Both the position numbers and the translations under genes were made by a program. Of a DNA stretch of 6,638 nt, positions 1-6,638 are shown piece after piece. The notes beneath the pieces were generated by a model, which worked only from the letters and a program-made list of their open reading frames with translations, ran no database searches and was not told the origin of the DNA. The stretch's first letter is position 1. Every line of letters starts with the position of its first letter. Origin of the DNA: Chloroflexota bacterium (GTDB lineage: Bacteria > Chloroflexota > Dehalococcoidia > JACPQK01); the NCBI GenBank assembly GCA_016190535.1, contig JACPQK010000036.1, positions 1 to 6,638 of the forward strand, in the 5' to 3' direction.

Positions 1-887
1 ACCAGGGCATCCTCGGCGTGACAGGCCGTGCAGGCGCTGCGCCCGGCGATTGTATGCTGGATGAGGGGAGGCGATACCGCAGAGGGGTCATGGCAGGCCA
101 CACAGGCCCGGTCCTGATAGGCTGTATGGGGTGGCTGCAGTTGGGCCAGCTTTACCCTGGTGTGACAGGTGGTACAGGCCTCGTTGCCCTGGAGCCTGTG
201 GGTAACGAGGGGGGGCAGGACGGTAGGCCCGCTGTGACATACCTGGCAGGTCTGGTTGCTCCGCCCGTTATGGGAGGTAGGCAGAGGGTCCAGGCCCCCT
301 TGAGCGTGGCAGGTGGTACAGCTCTGCCTCCCCTGGATGGCGTGGACGAGTACAGGGGCCTGCACCGCCTGGGGGATGGGCAGCCCGTGGCACATCATGC
401 AGGTCTTGTCTGTGCGGACCTGATGCGAAGCTGGCAAAGGGGAGATCCCCACAGGGGCATGGCAGGTGGCACAGCTTTCCTTACCCTCCAAGGGGTGGGC
501 CAGCCTGGCTGCCCAACCGGGAAGGGCCTGGTGACATTCCTGGCAGGAGGAGTTGGGGCGTCCCTCGTGGCTGACGGGCACCGGCCACATCACATAAGGC
601 CCGTGGCAGACCAGGCAGTCCTCCCTCCCCTGGGTGGTATGGGGGATGAAAGGCCCTGCCTCCTTGGGCGGTATCTGGGGGATGGGGGTAGGCGTGGGCA
701 AAGGCCCGGTGGCAGATGGGGAGGGCGAGGGGGTAACAGCCTCAGGTGGGGAGGTCGCTGGGGCCGTGGCCGTTCCCTGACAGCCCGCCAATACCAGGAT
801 AGTCAGGAATAGGCCCAAGGCCCCTGCTATCCACAGTATCTTCCCTTGTTCCGCCCGCTGCCTCAGGGTAGTCCGGTAGTTGTCCAT
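1..887 (-). CDS. Repetitive multihaem c-type cytochrome lipoprotein (at least 9 haems), 3' end outside window
   Basis: Reading from ATG at 887 gives 295 codons with no stop before the window edge, so the C-terminus is missing. Residues 17-35 are a hydrophobic signal segment ending in the lipobox LAGC, with Cys36 as the predicted lipidated residue. Residues 37-75 are a Pro/Thr/Ser/Ala-rich linker. Nine CxxCH motifs then start at residues 91, 115, 139, 163, 190, 214, 238, 262 and 286. Each has a His exactly eight residues before its first Cys, a good candidate for the distal haem ligand. The protein is therefore probably a membrane-tethered, bis-His, wire-like electron carrier on the outer face of the cytoplasmic membrane (or an outer-membrane lipoprotein in a diderm). 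The start is supported by AGAGG at 900-896, eight bases upstream. The gene follows the NrfD-like stop by only three bases, so it belongs to the operon. I do not recognise a named family. The partner and final acceptor are unknown. Confidence 0.93.
   Translation of the reverse strand, partial: MDNYRTTLRQRAEQGKILWIAGALGLFLTILVLAGCQGTATAPATSPPEAVTPSPSPSATGPLPTPTPIPQIPPKEAGPFIPHTTQGREDCLVCHGPYVMWPVPVSHEGRPNSSCQECHQALPGWAARLAHPLEGKESCATCHAPVGISPLPASHQVRTDKTCMMCHGLPIPQAVQAPVLVHAIQGRQSCTTCHAQGGLDPLPTSHNGRSNQTCQVCHSGPTVLPPLVTHRLQGNEACTTCHTRVKLAQLQPPHTAYQDRACVACHDPSAVSPPLIQHTIAGRSACTACHAEDAL
18..641 (-). repeat. In-gene tandem repeat: nine 24-residue (72-bp) haem units
   Basis: The unit is His-x7-Cys-x2-Cys-His-x12. 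Intervals between the first cysteines are 24, 24, 24, 27, 24, 24, 24 and 24 residues; the single longer interval carries a three-residue insertion between haems 4 and 5. A weaker 48-residue super-period is visible. Odd units tend to read H-x-[LIT]-x-G-[RKN] before the cysteines, while even units tend to read H-x-[GV]-R. Haem 8 departs from this, with Gln-Asp-Arg in place of Gly-Arg. Nucleotide identity between units is partial, so this is an old, diverged protein repeat rather than a recent DNA expansion. The array may continue beyond the window. Confidence 0.9.
597..625 (-). repeat. 29-bp exact direct repeat, copy 1 (lipoprotein haem 1)
   Basis: These 29 bases are identical to 3540-3568 in the same orientation. 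They encode the first haem site of the lipoprotein, spanning EDCLVCHGP. The match breaks at both flanks (a versus g on the left, t versus a on the right). Confidence 0.85.
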
Positions 888-890
888 TAG

Positions 891-2048
891 CTAAGCCTCT
901 TCCCTGGCCCCCACCCTTGCCCAGGGGGGGACGATATAGAGCAATAGAGCGAATACGATTAGGGGCAGCATCATTACCCCTGCGGCGGCCAACACCCCCT
1001 CTCTGCCCATCAGCGGCGGGTTGTAAGTGAGGAGTCCGCGCAGGCTCTTGGAGAAGAGCTGCCCCCCGATGACCACGTTCCAGCGCATGGCGAAGACCCC
1101 GGTCAGCACCAGGGCGGCGGCAACAAAGGACAGGGCTGTGCCCCAGCGCTGCCTGAGCCAGGACATGCCGCTTGCCCCCAGCAGGAGGAGGGGCAGCAGC
1201 GATCCCAGGCCTAGCTGGACACCCAGGTAGGTGTAGCGGAGCTTCTGGGTAATTAGCTGGGAGATGATCTCCCAGCTCTCCTCGGACTCATAGAGCATGG
1301 CCAGCACCTCCAGGCCTTCCAGGGTCAGGTCTATGATCAGGAATCCGATGAGCCACTGGGCCAGGGTGGCCACGCACTCCCTGTCCAGGGGTGCCCTCCT
1401 GAGCTTGCTGACCAGGACGTAAAGGATAAGGAGGAGCGCCATCCCGGAGACGATGGCCGAAAGCAGGAAGATCAGGGGCATCAGGGGTGTGGACCACCAG
1501 GGGTTGGCCTTGACGGCGCCGAAGATGAAGCCCACGTAGCCGTGCAGGATGCTGGCCGAGGGTATTCCGAGGAAGGCCAGGATGCGGGCCAGCCTCTCGT
1601 CGGTATGCAGCGCCCGCTGGGAGACGTCGAAGCTGCCCAGGGCCAGGGCGGAGTAGAGTAGCTTCCTCAGCCCCTGGCTGGACTGGGCGTAGGCCACGAT
1701 GTCCCGGCGGAAGACAAGCCAGACCTCAGCCACCACCAGCAACAGGTAGAAGGACCAGATGAAGCCGAAGCCCGACATGGCGGAGGTGAAGTTGGGCCGC
1801 AGGAACATCTCCAGGGCCCGCTCCGGCCTCCCCAGGTGCAGGAGCAGGGGCAGGGGGGCAACCAGCAGGAAGGCCAGGGCAGTGATCAGGGAGAAACGCG
1901 CGATGGGTTGGAACTTGCTGATGCCGAACACGTGGTAGAGGGCCGATACTATGAAAGACCCGGCCACCAGGCCCGTGATGAAGGGGTAGAGCACGATGAG
2001 CAAGCTCCACTGGGTCTCCAGCTCGTTGGGGTAGGCAAAGCCGGACAT
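891..2048 (-). CDS. NrfD/PsrC-family integral membrane subunit (quinone-interacting)
   Basis: This 385-residue protein consists mostly of hydrophobic helices; I count eight to nine segments, for example about 15-40, 50-70, 95-114, 188-213, 230-250, 275-297, 303-322 and 352-374. Family-typical patches are HLGRPERA at 71-78, the NPWWSTPLMPL stretch at 183-193, and RWNVVIGGQ at 322-330. Length and motifs fit the NrfD/PsrC/HmcC/QrcD superfamily. Known members sit in the cytoplasmic membrane, lack haem, bind quinone and pass electrons to or from a partner Fe-S subunit. The Fe-S gene lies directly upstream with a three-base gap, the usual pairing. The ATG has a purine-rich GGGGGTG about nine bases upstream. 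Direction of electron flow cannot be told from sequence. The TAG stop lies three bases before the next start, so translational coupling is likely. Confidence 0.93.
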   Translation of the reverse strand: MSGFAYPNELETQWSLLIVLYPFITGLVAGSFIVSALYHVFGISKFQPIARFSLITALAFLLVAPLPLLLHLGRPERALEMFLRPNFTSAMSGFGFIWSFYLLLVVAEVWLVFRRDIVAYAQSSQGLRKLLYSALALGSFDVSQRALHTDERLARILAFLGIPSASILHGYVGFIFGAVKANPWWSTPLMPLIFLLSAIVSGMALLLILYVLVSKLRRAPLDRECVATLAQWLIGFLIIDLTLEGLEVLAMLYESEESWEIISQLITQKLRYTYLGVQLGLGSLLPLLLLGASGMSWLRQRWGTALSFVAAALVLTGVFAMRWNVVIGGQLFSKSLRGLLTYNPPLMGREGVLAAAGVMMLPLIVFALLLYIVPPWARVGAREEA

Positions 2049-2051
2049 AGT

Positions 2052-2861
2052 TTAGCGCACCCCCTCTTCCAGGCCGATGTAGTAGACCTTGGGCCGTGTC
2101 CCCAGGGCCTCCTTAAGGACATAGACCCGCTGCTCCCTAAGCACCCGGGCCACAGGGCTGGCCGGGTCCCGAACATCTCCGAAGAGCCTGGCCCCCACGG
2201 GGCAGGCCTCCACGCAGGCGGGGGACAGGCCCTTGGTGATGCGGTGATAGCACCAGGTGCACTTGTCGGCCACACCCACCTGTCCCGTGGGCGTGACCTG
2301 GGCATGGGGGGGCACCAGGTACCTGGCCCCGTAGGGGCAGGCCTGAATGCAGTAGCGGCAGCCGACACAGGCCTCCTGGTCCACCAGGATTACCCGCTCG
2401 TCCGTCATATAGGTTGCCGCCACGGGGCAGACCCTGACGCAAGGGGGGTTCTCACACTGGTTGCAGAGCTTGGGCACGAAGAAAGTCTTCCTGATCTCCA
2501 GGCCCTGGTACTTGGCGTTGGCGGGCGCTGAGCCGAAGCCATACATGCCCGCCTCTGGGGAGTCCACGTAGACCTGCCCCTGCTCGCTGATAACGTACCT
2601 CTCCACCCAGGTCCTGGTAGTATGGGGCTCCGGGGGCACCCGGTTCTCCGCCTTGCAGGCCGCCACGCAGCGGCCACAGCCGATACACTTGGTGGTGTCG
2701 CAGACGAAGGCCCAGGGATGGCCCGCCTCCTGCCCTCCGGCCTGGGGAAGGGCCTTGCTGGCCACGGGAGCGGGCACCAGCAAGGGTATTCCCCGCGACA
2801 CCAGGACGGCACCGGCCAGAGCGGCCCCCCCCTTCAGAAACTGTCGTCTGGTTACACCCAT
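2052..2861 (-). CDS. Tat-exported ferredoxin-like subunit with four [4Fe-4S] clusters (HybA/NrfC/HmcB type)
   Basis: The 269-residue protein opens with a Tat signal: the twin-arginine motif TRRQFLK at residues 4-10, followed by a hydrophobic stretch to about residue 33. Four cluster sites follow. They are C59-x2-C62-x2-C65-x3-C69, C133-x2-C136-x4-C141-x3-C145, C165-x2-C168-x2-C171-x3-C175, and C201-x2-C204-x11-C216-x3-C220. This is the standard pattern of the DmsB/PsrB/HybA group, which wires an NrfD-type quinone subunit to a partner on the periplasmic side. An extra Cys54 lies just before cluster 1. I chose ATG at 2861 because GAGGTG (2873-2868) lies just upstream and it places the twin-arginine motif near the N-terminus. 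An in-frame ATG at 2885 lies inside the previous gene and has no ribosome-binding site. The gene sits 10 bases after the hexahaem gene and 3 before the NrfD-like gene. Confidence 0.94.
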   Translation of the reverse strand: MGVTRRQFLKGGAALAGAVLVSRGIPLLVPAPVASKALPQAGGQEAGHPWAFVCDTTKCIGCGRCVAACKAENRVPPEPHTTRTWVERYVISEQGQVYVDSPEAGMYGFGSAPANAKYQGLEIRKTFFVPKLCNQCENPPCVRVCPVAATYMTDERVILVDQEACVGCRYCIQACPYGARYLVPPHAQVTPTGQVGVADKCTWCYHRITKGLSPACVEACPVGARLFGDVRDPASPVARVLREQRVYVLKEALGTRPKVYYIGLEEGVR

Positions 2862-2867
2862 TGGGGA

Positions 2868-2873
2868 CACCTC
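2868..2873 (-). promoter_or_regulatory. Ribosome-binding site for the Fe-S subunit
   Basis: GAGGTG on the minus strand lies six bases before ATG 2861. It overlaps the TGA stop of the hexahaem gene at 2874-2872. It is the reason for preferring this start over the in-frame ATG at 2885. Confidence 0.65.
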
Positions 2874-3456
2874 ACCGCGTCTCATGGCACCGAGTGCAGG
2901 TCGCATCGGAGCGGCCCTGGTGGTTATCGGGTATCTTCAGGGGCTCCTTGACCCCGGGTAAATGGCAACTGGAACATGAGGCCCGTCCCTCCAGGGGATG
3001 GGGGATGCTGGGGCCCAGGCGCGGGGCACGGGGGTCGTGGCAGGTGACACAGAGCCTCTCGCCGCCGTGCTCCGCCAGGTCCACCTGAGGGAAGGCGCTG
3101 GGCCGGGAGGGGAGGCGGGCGTGGCACAGGCCGCAGAACTCCCGGGAGGTATCAGCAACGAGCTTGGCACCGGACTCCATGTGGGCCGCCGTGGGGCCGT
3201 GGCAGCTATCGCAGTTCACGGTGCTGTGCTCCGACTTCTGCCAGGCCGCGAACTCCCGGGGGTGGCATTCCTGGCAGGAGGCGGCGCCCTGGTGGCCTGG
3301 GGTCAGGGCGGCCCATTGCCGGGCGTTGCTCGCCTGGCTCCCCTCCTGGTAGAAGCCGGAGCGGGCCAGCAGGGTGATGCTGGGCGGGGAGCGGAACAGG
3401 GCGAGGCCCAGCGCCAGCATGCCCAGGAGGGCGGCCGCCCGGAGAAGGTGTCTCAC
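2872..3456 (-). CDS. Hexahaem c-type cytochrome, exported or signal-anchored (c554-like N-terminal half)
   Basis: The 194-residue protein starts with GTG at 3456. Residues 3-26 are hydrophobic after one Arg-His pair and act as a Sec signal or signal anchor; no clear signal-peptidase site is obvious. Six CxxCH motifs start at residues 61, 82, 108, 136, 161 and 187. The first part (CQECH, then Phe/Trp spacing and a Ser-x-His before CDSCH) resembles the cytochrome c554-like multihaem fold. The last two haems (residues 153-191) match the His-x7-CxxCH module of the lipoprotein. The start codon overlaps the NapC-type stop by four bases (GTGA) and has GGAGG seven bases upstream. In-frame codons further upstream lie inside the previous gene and encode nothing signal-like. 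The role is probably electron shuttling between membrane quinol oxidase modules and the outer cytochromes. A catalytic role is possible but no site for one is visible. Confidence 0.88.
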   Translation of the reverse strand: MRHLLRAAALLGMLALGLALFRSPPSITLLARSGFYQEGSQASNARQWAALTPGHQGAASCQECHPREFAAWQKSEHSTVNCDSCHGPTAAHMESGAKLVADTSREFCGLCHARLPSRPSAFPQVDLAEHGGERLCVTCHDPRAPRLGPSIPHPLEGRASCSSCHLPGVKEPLKIPDNHQGRSDATCTRCHETR

Positions 3457-4988
3457 CTTATCGCCTCCACCTGGTGGCAGACCAGGCAAGTCTGGTTGGT
3501 GCGCCCTACGTGAGAGGGGGTGAAGCGCCTGAATCCCAGAGGCCCGTGGCAGACCAGGCAGTCCTCCCAGCCCTCGGTGCGATGGAGAATAGGGGGTGGG
3601 GCCAACTGGTAGACTGGCCGTGCCCGGCCTGCGGCCGTGGCGGCCACTTCCGGGGGTATCTGGTAGTGGCACAGATTGCAGCCGGCAGGCACCACCCCAT
3701 TGACTTCACGGGCGCCCTTCTTTGCCAGCTCCCCGTGGCAGCGGAAGCACCCCTCATGGGTCAGGAAGTTGGAGTGGGTCTGCCAGTCCACCTTCATCTG
3801 GGGGAAGATCACCAGGGGAGTGAGCCGGCTAAGCTCGGCCTGGGCCTGGGCGATGGCTTCTCTCTTCTCCACCAGGAGTTGGGGGTAGTTCGTCTGATAG
3901 AAGGCTGTTATCCGCTCTATCTTGGCCTGGGCCGCTTCCAGGATGGCGCTGGTGGGCGTCAGTGCCTCCACGGCCAGCTTCTTGATGAAGGGCAGGGATG
4001 GGTCTATCCTGCCGGAGGCCAGGGCGTCGTCCACCAGCTCGTCGGGAGAGCGGAAGATATGGGTGGCCCGGTTGTGGCAGTCCACGCAGTCCATGAGGCG
4101 CTTACCCGCGGCGATGCTCTGCGGGGTGACCCGTTCGACAAGCTCGGGGTTTATGTACTCCGTAAGCTGGCCGCCAGCGCCTTCCACCCCTACCCAGGCG
4201 ACCCCCCGCCGGGTGTCGTCCAGGGTGAGGAGCCAGAGCTTGCTGGCGATGTGCCAGTGGATGTCCCTGGCCTGGCCTGGCTCCCCCCCACCCACCTTGA
4301 AGGCCAGGGCGTTGGTCTCCGGGGTGTTGCCTTCATCGGGCAGGAAATGCCTGTAGACCCGCAGCCTGTCCTGGGTGAACTTCTGGGGCCAGTGGCACTG
4401 CTCACAGGTCTCCCGGGCCGGGCGGAGGTTCTCTACGGGGGAGCTGATGGGGTGAGGATAGGTATTGAACACGGTGGCTACCACCAGGGGCAGCCCCTGG
4501 ATCTTGGACTTTACCAGCCAGGAGCCACCCGGTCCCACGTGGCAGGCGGTGCAGGACACCCGAGCGTGGGGGGAGGCTTGATAGGTGGTGTACTCTGGCT
4601 GCATCACCTCGTGGCAGAGGGTGCCACAGAAGGCGGGGCTGTCAGTGAACTCCAGAAGCTCGTAGCCGCCCACCAGGAGCAGGCTAAACTCCACCAGGCC
4701 GGCAGCCAGAAAGAACTGCACCCGCCGCCGCAAGTGGGGCTCGTTGAGGTCCACCACCGGATATTTCCCCGGATTCCTGGCCCAGCGGTGCAGTCCCAGG
4801 TAGAAGATAACTCCCCCGGCGAGGAAGAAGAGGGGCAACAGCGTGTATACCAGGACGCCCATCATGGGGCGGGTATCCGTCAAGTTGGAGTAGGCCACCA
4901 CTACCACCAGGGAGGCCGTAGCCGCCAGCAACAGCAGGGCCGCTAGCACCAGCCAGTCCCGGAGCCAGGGGATTCCCCAGCGCCTCAT
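3453..4988 (-). CDS. NapC/NirT-family multihaem cytochrome with three membrane helices and eight haem motifs
   Basis: The 511-residue protein has hydrophobic helices at about 12-33, 45-66 and 88-108. The third sits just before the first haem and corresponds to the single anchor of ordinary NapC/NrfH quinol dehydrogenases. The haem motifs are one Cx3CH (Cys121 to His126, followed by Glu-Val-Met) and seven CxxCH at residues 146, 195, 301, 414, 437, 477 and 501. The stretch around residues 127-150 (PEY, SPHARVSC, then CxxCH) is characteristic of this family, in which the protein oxidises menaquinol and hands electrons to exported cytochromes. It is far longer than the roughly 200-residue tetrahaem NapC/NrfH. 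Its helix count and length recall ImcH-type inner-membrane cytochromes of Geobacter; that comparison is from memory and untested. Residues 350-390 look like a long helical spacer. The ATG overlaps the cytochrome b stop as ATGA, with AGGAGG nine bases upstream. Confidence 0.92.
   Translation of the reverse strand: MRRWGIPWLRDWLVLAALLLLAATASLVVVVAYSNLTDTRPMMGVLVYTLLPLFFLAGGVIFYLGLHRWARNPGKYPVVDLNEPHLRRRVQFFLAAGLVEFSLLLVGGYELLEFTDSPAFCGTLCHEVMQPEYTTYQASPHARVSCTACHVGPGGSWLVKSKIQGLPLVVATVFNTYPHPISSPVENLRPARETCEQCHWPQKFTQDRLRVYRHFLPDEGNTPETNALAFKVGGGEPGQARDIHWHIASKLWLLTLDDTRRGVAWVGVEGAGGQLTEYINPELVERVTPQSIAAGKRLMDCVDCHNRATHIFRSPDELVDDALASGRIDPSLPFIKKLAVEALTPTSAILEAAQAKIERITAFYQTNYPQLLVEKREAIAQAQAELSRLTPLVIFPQMKVDWQTHSNFLTHEGCFRCHGELAKKGAREVNGVVPAGCNLCHYQIPPEVAATAAGRARPVYQLAPPPILHRTEGWEDCLVCHGPLGFRRFTPSHVGRTNQTCLVCHQVEAIR
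3464..3468 (-). promoter_or_regulatory. Ribosome-binding site deciding the GTG start of the hexahaem gene
   Basis: GGAGG on the minus strand lies seven bases before GTG 3456, inside the last codons of the NapC-type gene. It has the same core and spacing as the site before the CTG start of the cytochrome b gene. The stop and start overlap as GTGA, which points to translational coupling. Confidence 0.75.
3474..3584 (-). repeat. C-terminal di-haem module shared with the lipoprotein cytochrome
   Basis: Residues 469-505 of the NapC-type protein repeat the lipoprotein unit exactly in spacing: His469-x7-Cys477 and His493-x7-Cys501, with the two motifs 24 residues apart. Local sequence also agrees (EDCLVCHGP, then SH-x-GR). 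The equivalent in the lipoprotein is residues 83-119. A looser copy, with 26-residue spacing, ends the hexahaem protein at residues 153-191 (positions 3000-2884). Confidence 0.8.
3540..3568 (-). repeat. 29-bp exact direct repeat, copy 2 (NapC-type haem 7)
   Basis: Identical to 597-625. It encodes the seventh haem site of the NapC-type protein (around Cys477), with the same reading frame and the same peptide EDCLVCHGP. Confidence 0.85.
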
Positions 4989-5824
4989 GTTTCCCTGCCT
5001 CCTGAGGAGGCTATCCCCGGCGTCTCCGGTGCTGCCCCATCGGGAGGAGGAGCCTTCGTCTCCCCGGTCACCTCGGGCTCCCCAGGGGCCTCTTCTGGGA
5101 GCTGGAGCTCCAGGGGGTGCTCCTCCCAGTAGCGCTCTCTGGGCACCCTGCCGGTGAAGATGGACTTGTTCAGAGGGAAGACCTTGGGCGTCAGGTGGGA
5201 GAAGAAGATGTGGACGATGAAGATCCAGCTCACCGCCAGCACGGCTTCATCGCTGTGGGCTACCAGAGCAACGGGGATAGCCCAGCCGGGTAGCAACTTG
5301 CTTACCAGCACGGGGTACATCAGGATGAAACCAGAGCCAGCCATGATGGGCATGCCCCAGAAGATGGCCCAGTAATCGAACTTCTCCCGGTAGTTGAAGC
5401 GTCCGTAGCGTGCCCTGGCGGGGGAGAGCCCCAGGTAGTACTTCAGATCCGCCAGCAGGTCCTGGAGGTCCCTGGGGCTGGGGAACATCTGGAAGGGGAA
5501 GGGCCTCTTCAGGAGGAGCGTGGTGTAGAGCAAGTAGGCTACGTGGTACACGCAGTCGCCCACCATGACGAAGGCGGCGATGCGGTGGGCGAAGCGGGTG
5601 CTCTCTATGCCGCCCCAGAAGCCAATCCACCACTGGCTAATGGCTAGCCCGTCGAACTTGAGGGGCAGGCCGGTGAGGGCCAGCACGATGAAGCTGGACA
5701 TCATGAGAAAGTGCTGGATGCGCTGATGGATGTCAAAGCGCACCACATATTCCTGCTCCTGGTGCACGGTGGCCTGAGTTACTGCCTCCACGGTAGCTGC
5801 CAAAGTCAGCGTCTCCTCACTCAG
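4985..5824 (-). CDS. Cytochrome b (di-haem b-type, four-helix) membrane subunit, probable CTG start
   Basis: Starting at CTG 5824 the protein has 279 residues. Four hydrophobic helices are visible at about 39-58, 76-104, 152-178 and 184-209. Candidate haem b ligands are His38, His94, His190 and His205, with further histidines at 33, 80 and 210. This resembles the cytochrome b561 / NiFe-hydrogenase-type cytochrome b group, which moves electrons between quinone and a partner across the membrane. Residues 1-30 are hydrophilic. The tail from about 236 is rich in Pro, Glu and Gly. The frame is open further upstream, but that part lies antiphase inside the preceding gene and reads as shadow sequence. 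No ATG occurs before the first helix. CTG with GGAGG seven bases upstream is the best start; an in-frame TTG and GTG slightly downstream are alternatives. The adjoining cytochrome c is the likely direct partner. Confidence 0.88.
   Translation of the reverse strand: MSEETLTLAATVEAVTQATVHQEQEYVVRFDIHQRIQHFLMMSSFIVLALTGLPLKFDGLAISQWWIGFWGGIESTRFAHRIAAFVMVGDCVYHVAYLLYTTLLLKRPFPFQMFPSPRDLQDLLADLKYYLGLSPARARYGRFNYREKFDYWAIFWGMPIMAGSGFILMYPVLVSKLLPGWAIPVALVAHSDEAVLAVSWIFIVHIFFSHLTPKVFPLNKSIFTGRVPRERYWEEHPLELQLPEEAPGEPEVTGETKAPPPDGAAPETPGIASSGGRET
4998..5010 (-). promoter_or_regulatory. Inverted repeat covering the ribosome-binding site of the NapC-type gene
   Basis: The 13-base sequence is a near-perfect palindrome. 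In the mRNA, CCUCC and GGAGG arms flank a three-base loop, and the 3' arm is the Shine-Dalgarno sequence (AGGAGG, 5003-4998) nine bases before ATG 4988. It lies in the last sense codons of the cytochrome b gene, so ribosomes finishing that gene would melt it. That would make translation of the downstream gene depend on the upstream one. The palindrome and spacing are seen directly; the regulatory role is inferred. Confidence 0.45.
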
Positions 5825-6638
5825 TCTCTCGCCTCCGGGAAAGGGCCCACTTTCCGGCCTCGGCCAGGACCAGGGAGACACCCAGGGCCACCACCGAAGC
5901 GGTAAGGAAGGTAAAGAAGCGCTCGGCGTAGTGGACCACGGGGAAGTTCTCCGGGGTGGCTTCCCGGTGCCCCAGGAAACCGCTGGCAAAGCCGGTCCCC
6001 GACCCCGGGTGGCACTGTTCGCAGGTACGGGAGAGGTTCTCTACCCCGGCCACGGGGGAGGTGGGGTCTCGGGGGCTCATTATGTTGTGGGTGCCATGAC
6101 AGTTGGTACAGGTGGCCTTGTTCAGTTGGCTTATCTTTTCGGTAGGACTCAGCTTCATGGCCTTGCCGTGGAAGCTCCTCATGTAGGACTCGTAGACCTT
6201 CTCCACTATGCCGTAGCGGGCCATGAGCTGGGGGTCGTCGTGGCAGCGGGCGCAGGTCTGGCTGATGTTCTGCTTGTATGCCGGGGCCTCGGGCTGGAGC
6301 ACCCGGACGATGCTGTGTGGGTTGGCCTGGGGGCTGTGGCAGTCCACGCAGGTGGCCACGTCCTGGTTGCCCTGGAGCAACTGCTGGCCGTGGATGCTCT
6401 GGAGGTGCAGCTTGTACTGGTACTGGTGGCAAGTGCCACAGCGGGCGGCCAGGGAGAGCTTGTTGAGGGGGGTGGGCACCTCGTGGGGCTTGCTGGTATG
6501 ACAGGTGGTACAGTCCACGTAGCGGTGGGCGGAGACATCCAGGGCCTGCTGGTTGACGTAGAGGGAGACCTCCGCCCCGTCGGAGGTAAGCAGGGTCAAC
6601 TCGGGGTTGCCATGGCACTGGAGGCAAGCGTGCTCGTC
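5817..6638 (-). CDS. Multihaem c-type cytochrome with C-terminal membrane anchor, 5' end outside window
   Basis: The frame is open from the right edge to TGA at 5819-5817, giving 273 residues of the C-terminal part; the start and any signal peptide are missing. A possible TTG start at 6599 is unconvincing, because a CxxCH motif (CLQCH, the first nine residues in view) lies upstream in the same frame. Seven CxxCH motifs begin at fragment residues 5, 43, 67, 97, 129, 177 and 206, with irregular spacing. Candidate distal histidines include His83 (SIHG), His157 (SFHG) and His184 (GTHNI). A hydrophobic helix at about 240-262 is followed by a Lys/Arg-rich end, so the haem domain is exported and the C-terminus is cytoplasmic. 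The gene overlaps cytochrome b by eight bases. The pair looks like a split quinol-to-c-haem unit, comparable with CbcL-type fused c/b cytochromes. The exact family is not recognised. Confidence 0.9.
   Translation of the reverse strand, partial: DEHACLQCHGNPELTLLTSDGAEVSLYVNQQALDVSAHRYVDCTTCHTSKPHEVPTPLNKLSLAARCGTCHQYQYKLHLQSIHGQQLLQGNQDVATCVDCHSPQANPHSIVRVLQPEAPAYKQNISQTCARCHDDPQLMARYGIVEKVYESYMRSFHGKAMKLSPTEKISQLNKATCTNCHGTHNIMSPRDPTSPVAGVENLSRTCEQCHPGSGTGFASGFLGHREATPENFPVVHYAERFFTFLTASVVALGVSLVLAEAGKWALSRRRETE
5832..5836 (-). promoter_or_regulatory. Ribosome-binding site supporting the CTG start of cytochrome b
   Basis: GGAGG on the minus strand lies seven bases before CTG 5824, within the last codons of the upstream cytochrome gene. 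Its core and spacing match those of the GTG-started gene at 3456, which favours CTG over the later TTG or GTG codons. Confidence 0.6.

What the first reader, a model, noticed from the sequence alone, without database searches (positions are those of the whole stretch)
18..641. Nine-haem lipoprotein built on a strict 24-residue ruler with a histidine eight residues before every haem
All nine CxxCH motifs are preceded by His at exactly minus eight, and eight consecutive intervals are 24,24,24,27,24,24,24,24 residues. Such regularity suggests a linear, self-similar haem wire with intramodule bis-His ligation. It is tethered by a lipid and a flexible Pro/Thr/Ser linker. Most multihaem cytochromes have irregular spacing, so this could be a distinct repeat family or a filament-forming cytochrome.
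Basis: partly seen in the sequence, partly recalled or inferred. Interest (0 to 1): 0.8.

Follow-up and report, generated by a model that had tools for sequence, protein, structure and literature searches.

The report
Haem wire built from two-haem modules
A bacterial gene, cut off by the edge of the window, encodes what looks like a lipid-anchored protein wire of about fifteen haems assembled from repeated two-haem modules, beside genes for a membrane electron-transfer complex; it is a tidy new variant of known multihaem electron-carrying proteins.

Summary
On the minus strand, window 3-887 encodes a probable lipoprotein with nine CxxCH motifs spaced 24,24,24,27,24,24,24,24, all with His at -8; its 18 histidines are exactly nine proximal plus nine at -8. 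'Nine-haem' is a window-edge effect: the closest relative, in a Chloroflexi MAG (L001), has 15 haems. The interpretation needs correction: the unit is not a 24-residue one-haem repeat but a ~48-residue two-haem module of alternating A and B types. The module also ends two neighbouring cytochromes in this window and, in relatives, sits on flexible linkers or is fused to NapC/NirT-type or cytochrome b proteins. Of 106 isolated haem pairs, 99 hold exactly two spare histidines, which fits ligands supplied within the pair. Best reading: an electron conduit between an NrfD/FeS/NapC-type/cytochrome b quinone module and an outside partner. A filament has no good support. Which iron each -8 His binds was not measured: the six-haem AlphaFold model (pLDDT 73.6) has no haem and matched no solved structure. 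Most relatives do not keep the strict ruler (3 of 178 retrieved).

The parts
3..887 (-). Haem-array lipoprotein, incomplete at its C-terminal end (window edge): 9 CxxCH, four A-B modules plus one A unit; probable signal/lipobox to C36, linker about residues 37-82
   Evidence: unit types; relative with 15 haems
891..2048 (-). NrfD-like membrane protein
   Evidence: PF03916 146.6 bits, cut-off 25.8; fails NrfD and DsrP equivalog cut-offs (55.4 of 347.6; 50.4 of 350)
2052..2858 (-). Exported 4Fe-4S protein with Tat signal (start codon not certain)
   Evidence: Fer4 models and PF10518 26.1, cut-off 22.7; DsrO model 206.3, cut-off 200; NrfC/PsrB-type solved chain 2vpw_B E 2.2e-43
2872..3456 (-). 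Six-haem cytochrome; its last two haems form one A-B module (gap 26, both with -8 His)
3453..4988 (-). NapC/NirT-type seven-haem cytochrome; its last two haems form one A-B module (gap 24, both with -8 His)
   Evidence: PF03264 36.6, cut-off 24.1; spacing
4985..5818 (-). Cytochrome b561-type membrane protein (start not certain; the open frame reaches 5989)
   Evidence: PF01292 39.3, cut-off 30.1; frame
5817..6638 (-). Seven-haem cytochrome with C-terminal hydrophobic segment, incomplete at its N-terminal end (window edge)

Best explanation
A probably lipid-anchored, extracytoplasmic multihaem c-type cytochrome that works as an electron conduit. Shown by sequence: consecutive two-haem modules (A: H-x3-G-R/K-x2-CxxCH; B: P-x-S-H-x2-R-x4-CxxCH), each bringing two proximal His and two His at -8; about 7.5 modules (15 haems) in the closest relative. 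Inferred: both haems of a module are bis-His ligated within it; modules are joined without long linkers so that haem follows haem; scaled from MtrA (ten haems, about 80 A, PMC7198977) fifteen haems would reach roughly 120 A. Inferred: one end exchanges electrons with the NrfD/FeS/NapC-type/cytochrome b quinone module encoded just upstream, the other with a surface partner, in L001 perhaps the product of the next gene, an eight-haem protein with a collagen-like stretch. Direction of flow is not decided.
For: Ruler and -8 His; His budget 18 of 18 in the window, 30 of 30 in L019; A/B alternation and A/B consensus; isolated pairs with two spare His, 99 of 106; same seven genes in the same order in L001; genes separated by few bases or overlapping; the module is found fused to NapC/NirT-type or cytochrome b proteins: 22 and 17 of 178 retrieved proteins carry those Pfam labels, e.g. 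P0150, NapC/NirT-type with 17 haems in one chain.
Against: No measured iron-His distances; models are weak or matched nothing. The array follows NrfD in only 1 of the 5 genomes that carry this NrfD among 197, and G008 has a 15-haem array without this NrfD at E 1e-60, so the partnership is not fixed. 40 of 106 isolated pairs have -8 His only on the second haem. Surface location, anchoring and direction are inferred.
Confidence: 0.62

Rival explanations
1. Electron store or relay: a many-haem buffer held near the membrane that exchanges electrons with soluble partners and does not reach the surface.
For: Same sequence facts as the conduit; the downstream partner gene is not conserved.
Against: The compact, linker-free array and, in L001, the following eight-haem collagen-stalk protein fit a conduit better; neither excludes a store.
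Confidence: 0.2
2. Filament-forming cytochrome (nanowire subunit).
For: Haem-dense, repetitive, few secondary elements in the model; weak profile hit to 7tfs_A, recalled as OmcE (E 0.0035).
Against: Probable lipid anchor (conserved Cys); no spare or missing His that would call for coordination between subunits as in OmcS/OmcE (PMC9473688, passages); best stretch to 7tfs_A only 12.7 bits. OmcZ-like assembly not excluded.
Confidence: 0.07
3. Array of independent modules tethered for diffusion, as in PgcA, rather than a rigid wire.
For: P0002 has the same module on Pro/Thr-rich linkers, gaps 51-58; PgcA shows that tethered haem domains work (PMC11520253, abstract).
Against: In the window gaps between modules are 24 or 27, as short as inside a module.
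Confidence: 0.07
4. Enzyme: one or more haems catalyse reduction of a soluble substrate.
For: Models of NrfH, DmsE-type and HmcA cytochromes match weakly, all below cut-off.
Against: Every haem seen in the window has CxxCH and a candidate distal His; haems beyond the edge were not seen, in L001 the last has His at -9 instead of -8.
Confidence: 0.04

Closest known systems
MtrA / DmsE-family decahaem cytochromes (TIGR03508; solved chain 6r2q_A, recalled as MtrA of MtrCAB)
   Same: Linear chain of bis-His haems; profile E 1.6e-8 to 6r2q_A; in the aligned part CMSCH to CASCH are 24 apart with a His at -8 (counted by eye)
   Different: TIGR03508 scores 49.5 against a cut-off of 192.2; MtrA sits in a porin, this one carries a probable lipid anchor and its haem spacing is more regular
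MtrC/OmcA-type outer-membrane decahaem cytochromes
   Same: Best solved-structure profile hit, 9eov_A MtrC, E 2.5e-9
   Different: PF22113 scores 23.6, below its cut-off 30; no module alternation examined there
Paired_CXXCH_1 (PF09699) and Cytochrome_C7 (PF14522)
   Same: Scores 44.2 (cut-off 20.6) and 54.2 (24.8)
   Different: General two- to three-haem motif models; the NCBIfam doubled-CXXCH model TIGR01905 is below cut-off (20.2 of 25.2); they do not describe A/B types or the array
PgcA of Geobacter sulfurreducens (tethered haem domains)
   Same: Relative P0002 strings haem modules on Pro/Thr-rich linkers
   Different: PgcA has three single-haem domains (abstract); the window protein has no linkers between modules
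NrfD/FeS/multihaem complexes: NrfABCD, DsrMKJOP, Nhc, ACIII
   Same: NrfD plus exported FeS protein plus multihaem cytochromes (PMC8076601 passages)
   Different: NrfD protein below NrfD, DsrP, HmcC and QrcD cut-offs; nine haems in Nhc is a coincidence with the window edge

Membership tests
Paired_CXXCH_1 / Cytochrome_C7 domain cytochromes (Pfam) | Score above the curated cut-off | tested here: met
   44.2 of 20.6 and 54.2 of 24.8
Doubled CXXCH domain (TIGR01905) | Score above the curated cut-off | tested here: not met
   20.2 of 25.2
DmsE/MtrA decahaem family (TIGR03508) | Score above the curated cut-off | tested here: not met
   49.5 of 192.2, on an incomplete protein
DmsE/MtrA decahaem family (TIGR03508) | Ten haems and a porin partner | tested here: not met
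   L001 relative has 15 haems; no porin among the seven window genes by Pfam; genes further away not examined for porins
MtrC/MtrF outer-membrane cytochromes (PF22113) | Score above the curated cut-off | tested here: not met
   23.6 of 30
Filament-forming cytochromes (OmcS, OmcE, OmcZ) | Polymerisation into filaments | not testable with these tools
   Only weak sequence similarity to 7tfs_A, recalled as OmcE
PgcA-type tethered cytochromes | Haem domains separated by repeated (PT)x linkers | tested here: not met
   Gaps of 24 or 27 throughout the window
Bis-His multihaem conduit | A distal His for each haem | tested here: inconclusive
   One -8 His per haem by sequence; ligation not measured
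DsrMKJOP complex | DsrP, DsrO and DsrMKJ together | tested here: not met
   FeS passes DsrO (206.3 of 200) but NrfD fails DsrP (50.4 of 350) and no DsrMKJ model is among the hits of the window genes shown (DsrJ model 18.1 of 100 on the array)
Nine-haem cytochrome complex (Nhc) | Nine haems in the c-type subunit | tested here: not met
   Window protein is cut; relative L001 has 15

The most novel reading that the evidence does not exclude
A modular wiring kit: one self-ligated two-haem module, used singly at the ends of membrane-associated cytochromes, strung on flexible linkers, or joined without linkers into rigid wires of fairly constant length (15 haems = 7.5 modules in three relatives, ending on a half module that could dock a partner haem). 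The window shows the single and the welded form in one gene cluster; of the 8 retrieved proteins whose given name states an organism, 7 are from Chloroflexota.
Probability: 0.4. Interest if true: 0.65.

Novelty: new variant of a known kind. Interest (0 to 1): 0.5.

Why it matters
If each two-haem module really carries all its own ligands, as the histidine count suggests, nature lengthens and shortens these wires by whole modules. That would give a clean system for testing how chain length and stiffness set electron-transfer rates, and a candidate for how poorly known Chloroflexota move electrons through their envelope. It also shows that a strikingly regular haem ruler can arise from a two-haem domain that relatives use in irregular arrangements.

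Tried and rejected
A one-haem 24-residue repeat was rejected: units fall into two alternating types and many relatives space pairs, not single haems. Recent tandem duplication was rejected: same-type units in the window share on average 0.21 of variable positions, and unit i of the window matches unit i of L001 best in 9 of 9. A nine-haem protein was rejected as an edge effect. Unit-by-unit correspondence with more distant relatives is NOT clear: the same position is the best match in 3 of 9 (L019), 4 of 9 (P0001) and 5 of 9 (P0102), so the shared number 15 in L001, P0001 and L019 could be partly coincidence.

Literature: nine paper searches; I saw listings and abstract beginnings, none of which describes this array. 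That covers only the open-licence library held. Seen further: passages of PMC12954529, PMC8076601, PMC7198977, PMC9473688, PMC7829351, PMC2825233, PMC12307469; abstract and outline of PMC11520253. The NrfB structure paper is not held.

Full report
OBSERVATION. The minus-strand frame 3-887 starts with ATG, has a hydrophobic segment with a lipobox-like LAGC at C36 and a Pro/Thr/Ser-rich stretch, then nine CxxCH motifs with gaps 24,24,24,27,24,24,24,24 and His at -8 in 9 of 9. It holds 18 histidines: nine in CxxCH and nine at -8. The frame runs off the window, so nine is a minimum. No whole genome is held for the window.

THE COMPLETE GENE. The closest of 4 relatives found in genome contigs is in a Chloroflexi metagenome-assembled genome, L001 (JACPQM010000032.1). 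It has the same seven genes in the same order; best segments are 80% (NrfD), 82% (FeS), 76% (NapC-type), 74% (cytochrome b), 80% (seven-haem), 59% (six-haem) and 59% (array) identical. Its complete lipoprotein has 447 residues and 15 haems, gaps 24,24,24,27,24,24,24,24,24,24,25,24,24,24, with His at -8 in 14 of 15 and at -9 for the last. The window's eight gaps equal the first eight of L001. Two more distant relatives also have 15 haems: P0001 (424 aa, gaps 22-30, -8 His in 14 of 15) and L019:9458-10864 from genome G008 (469 aa, gaps 23 or 24, 15 of 15). P0102 has 14 haems, 14 of 14 with -8 His. Unit-by-unit correspondence is clear only between the window and L001 (9 of 9), not with the distant ones (3, 4 and 5 of 9).

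THE UNIT IS TWO HAEMS. Units of the same parity resemble each other more than units of different parity at non-motif positions: permutation p 0.0076 (window), 2e-4 (L001), 4e-4 (P0001), 0.009 (P0002). With 9 and 15 units the first two are about the smallest values possible. Over 36 A and 32 B units of five proteins, A has G at -4 (72%) and R or K at -3 (84%); B has P at -11 (91%), S at -9 (75%) and R at -5 (94%). In P0002 five A-B pairs are strung on Pro/Thr-rich linkers, gaps 24-26 inside and 51-58 between pairs. L011 and L016 have inner gaps of 24 and outer gaps mostly of 32-35. The single 27 gap of the window is an outer gap. The same pair forms the last two haems of the NapC-type and of the six-haem cytochrome in the window.

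LIGANDS. Among the first 149 proteins retrieved I took haem pairs 22-27 apart with no other haem within 40 residues on either side: 106 pairs. Of these 99 have two histidines besides CxxCH, 5 have three and 2 have one. Both haems have -8 His in 56, only the second in 40, only the first in 3, neither in 7; a few of the 106 are NapC-type motifs and not A-B modules. With two haems and two spare histidines, an isolated module must supply both distal ligands itself or lack them. Whether each His binds its own haem or its partner's is not decided.

STRUCTURE. The L001 protein (six aligned sequences) gave pLDDT 49.2, unusable. A six-haem piece of the window (207-653, ten sequences) gave pLDDT 73.6, pTM 0.49: a short helix on each CxxCH, and a further three-residue helix at the -8 His of the three B units only. 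It matched no solved structure; for loop-rich haem proteins without haem this says little. By sequence profile the solved chains at E below 0.01 are MtrC 9eov_A (2.5e-9), 6r2q_A (1.6e-8; the table calls it 'Cystathionine beta-synthase', I recall it as MtrA), 28pb_A (1.4e-6), 8k9e_A (0.003) and 7tfs_A (0.0035, recalled as OmcE). Shared CxxCH motifs drive such hits.

HOW COMMON. Of 178 proteins retrieved by three similarity searches, the longest run of -8-His haems at 23-25 spacing is one or two in 136, three or four in 39, and 6, 12 and 14 in P0001, P0101 and P0102. So among the hits the pair is common (135 of the first 149 have at least one by a looser rule) and the long strict ruler rare. This is no random sample of cytochromes. 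In 197 genomes related to G001 (G001 counted), 7 matched the L001 array at E 1e-12.

CONTEXT AND FUNCTION. Order of transcription in the window: seven-haem cytochrome, cytochrome b561-type, NapC/NirT-type seven-haem, six-haem, Tat-signal FeS, NrfD, haem array; neighbours are a few bases apart or overlap, with the cytochrome b and FeS starts uncertain. In L001 the next gene codes for 822 residues with eight haems, a collagen-like stretch and a hit to PF22113 (45 bits, cut-off 30). The window's NrfD protein is matched at E 1e-60 in 5 of 197 genomes. In 5 of 5 an FeS gene and a six-haem-type (cyt2-like) gene precede it, but the array follows it only in G001. G174 has another six-haem protein there; in G038 the next haem-bearing gene codes for a collagen-like protein with two CxxCH; in G012 and G011 I saw no gene of 120 codons or more with two CxxCH after NrfD in the stretches fetched, G011's contig ending about 3 kb on. 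G008 has a 15-haem array but no match to this NrfD; its array lies near histidine kinase and response-regulator genes. The array is therefore an exchangeable partner of a more conserved quinone module, and not bound to it. Fusions link the module to membrane electron entry: 22 of 178 retrieved proteins carry the Pfam NapC/NirT label and 17 the cytochrome b561 label; P0150 joins a NapC/NirT-type part, with spacing like the window's, and a compact array, 17 haems in one chain. I conclude, by inference, that the array carries electrons between the membrane module and something outside. The length of about 120 A is scaled from MtrA's ~80 A for ten haems (PMC7198977, passages).

VERDICT. Observation confirmed. 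Interpretation partly supported: right about a regular array with internal ligands, corrected to a two-haem module and to about 15 haems, without good support for filaments.

Noticed in passing
L001:11226-13694 and L032:6063-7355: Two haem-bearing proteins with collagen-like Gly-Pro-Ala stretches near their start lie downstream of the NrfD genes in two genomes; a collagen-like stalk on a cytochrome is unusual.
   Followed up: partly
window 2052-2858 (-): The FeS protein passes the DsrO equivalog cut-off (206.3 of 200) although the neighbouring NrfD protein fails DsrP (50.4 of 350), so automatic naming could mislead.
   Followed up: no
L019:9458-13635: In genome G008 a 15-haem array lies beside a seven-haem protein with a cytochrome c domain and near response-regulator and histidine-kinase genes.
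   Followed up: partly
L016:109-3123 (G045): A 1004-residue protein joins a NapC-like part, seven or so haem pairs at 24/32-35 spacing and a C-terminal single-haem domain, 21 CxxCH in all.
   Followed up: no
P0101: An 809-residue protein with 25 CxxCH: 16 at near-24 spacing followed by a differently spaced cytochrome part and a hydrophobic C-terminus.
   Followed up: no
solved chain 6r2q_A: The chain is named 'Cystathionine beta-synthase' in the table although its matched sequence is full of CxxCH; I recall it as MtrA of MtrCAB, so the deposited label looks wrong.
   Followed up: no
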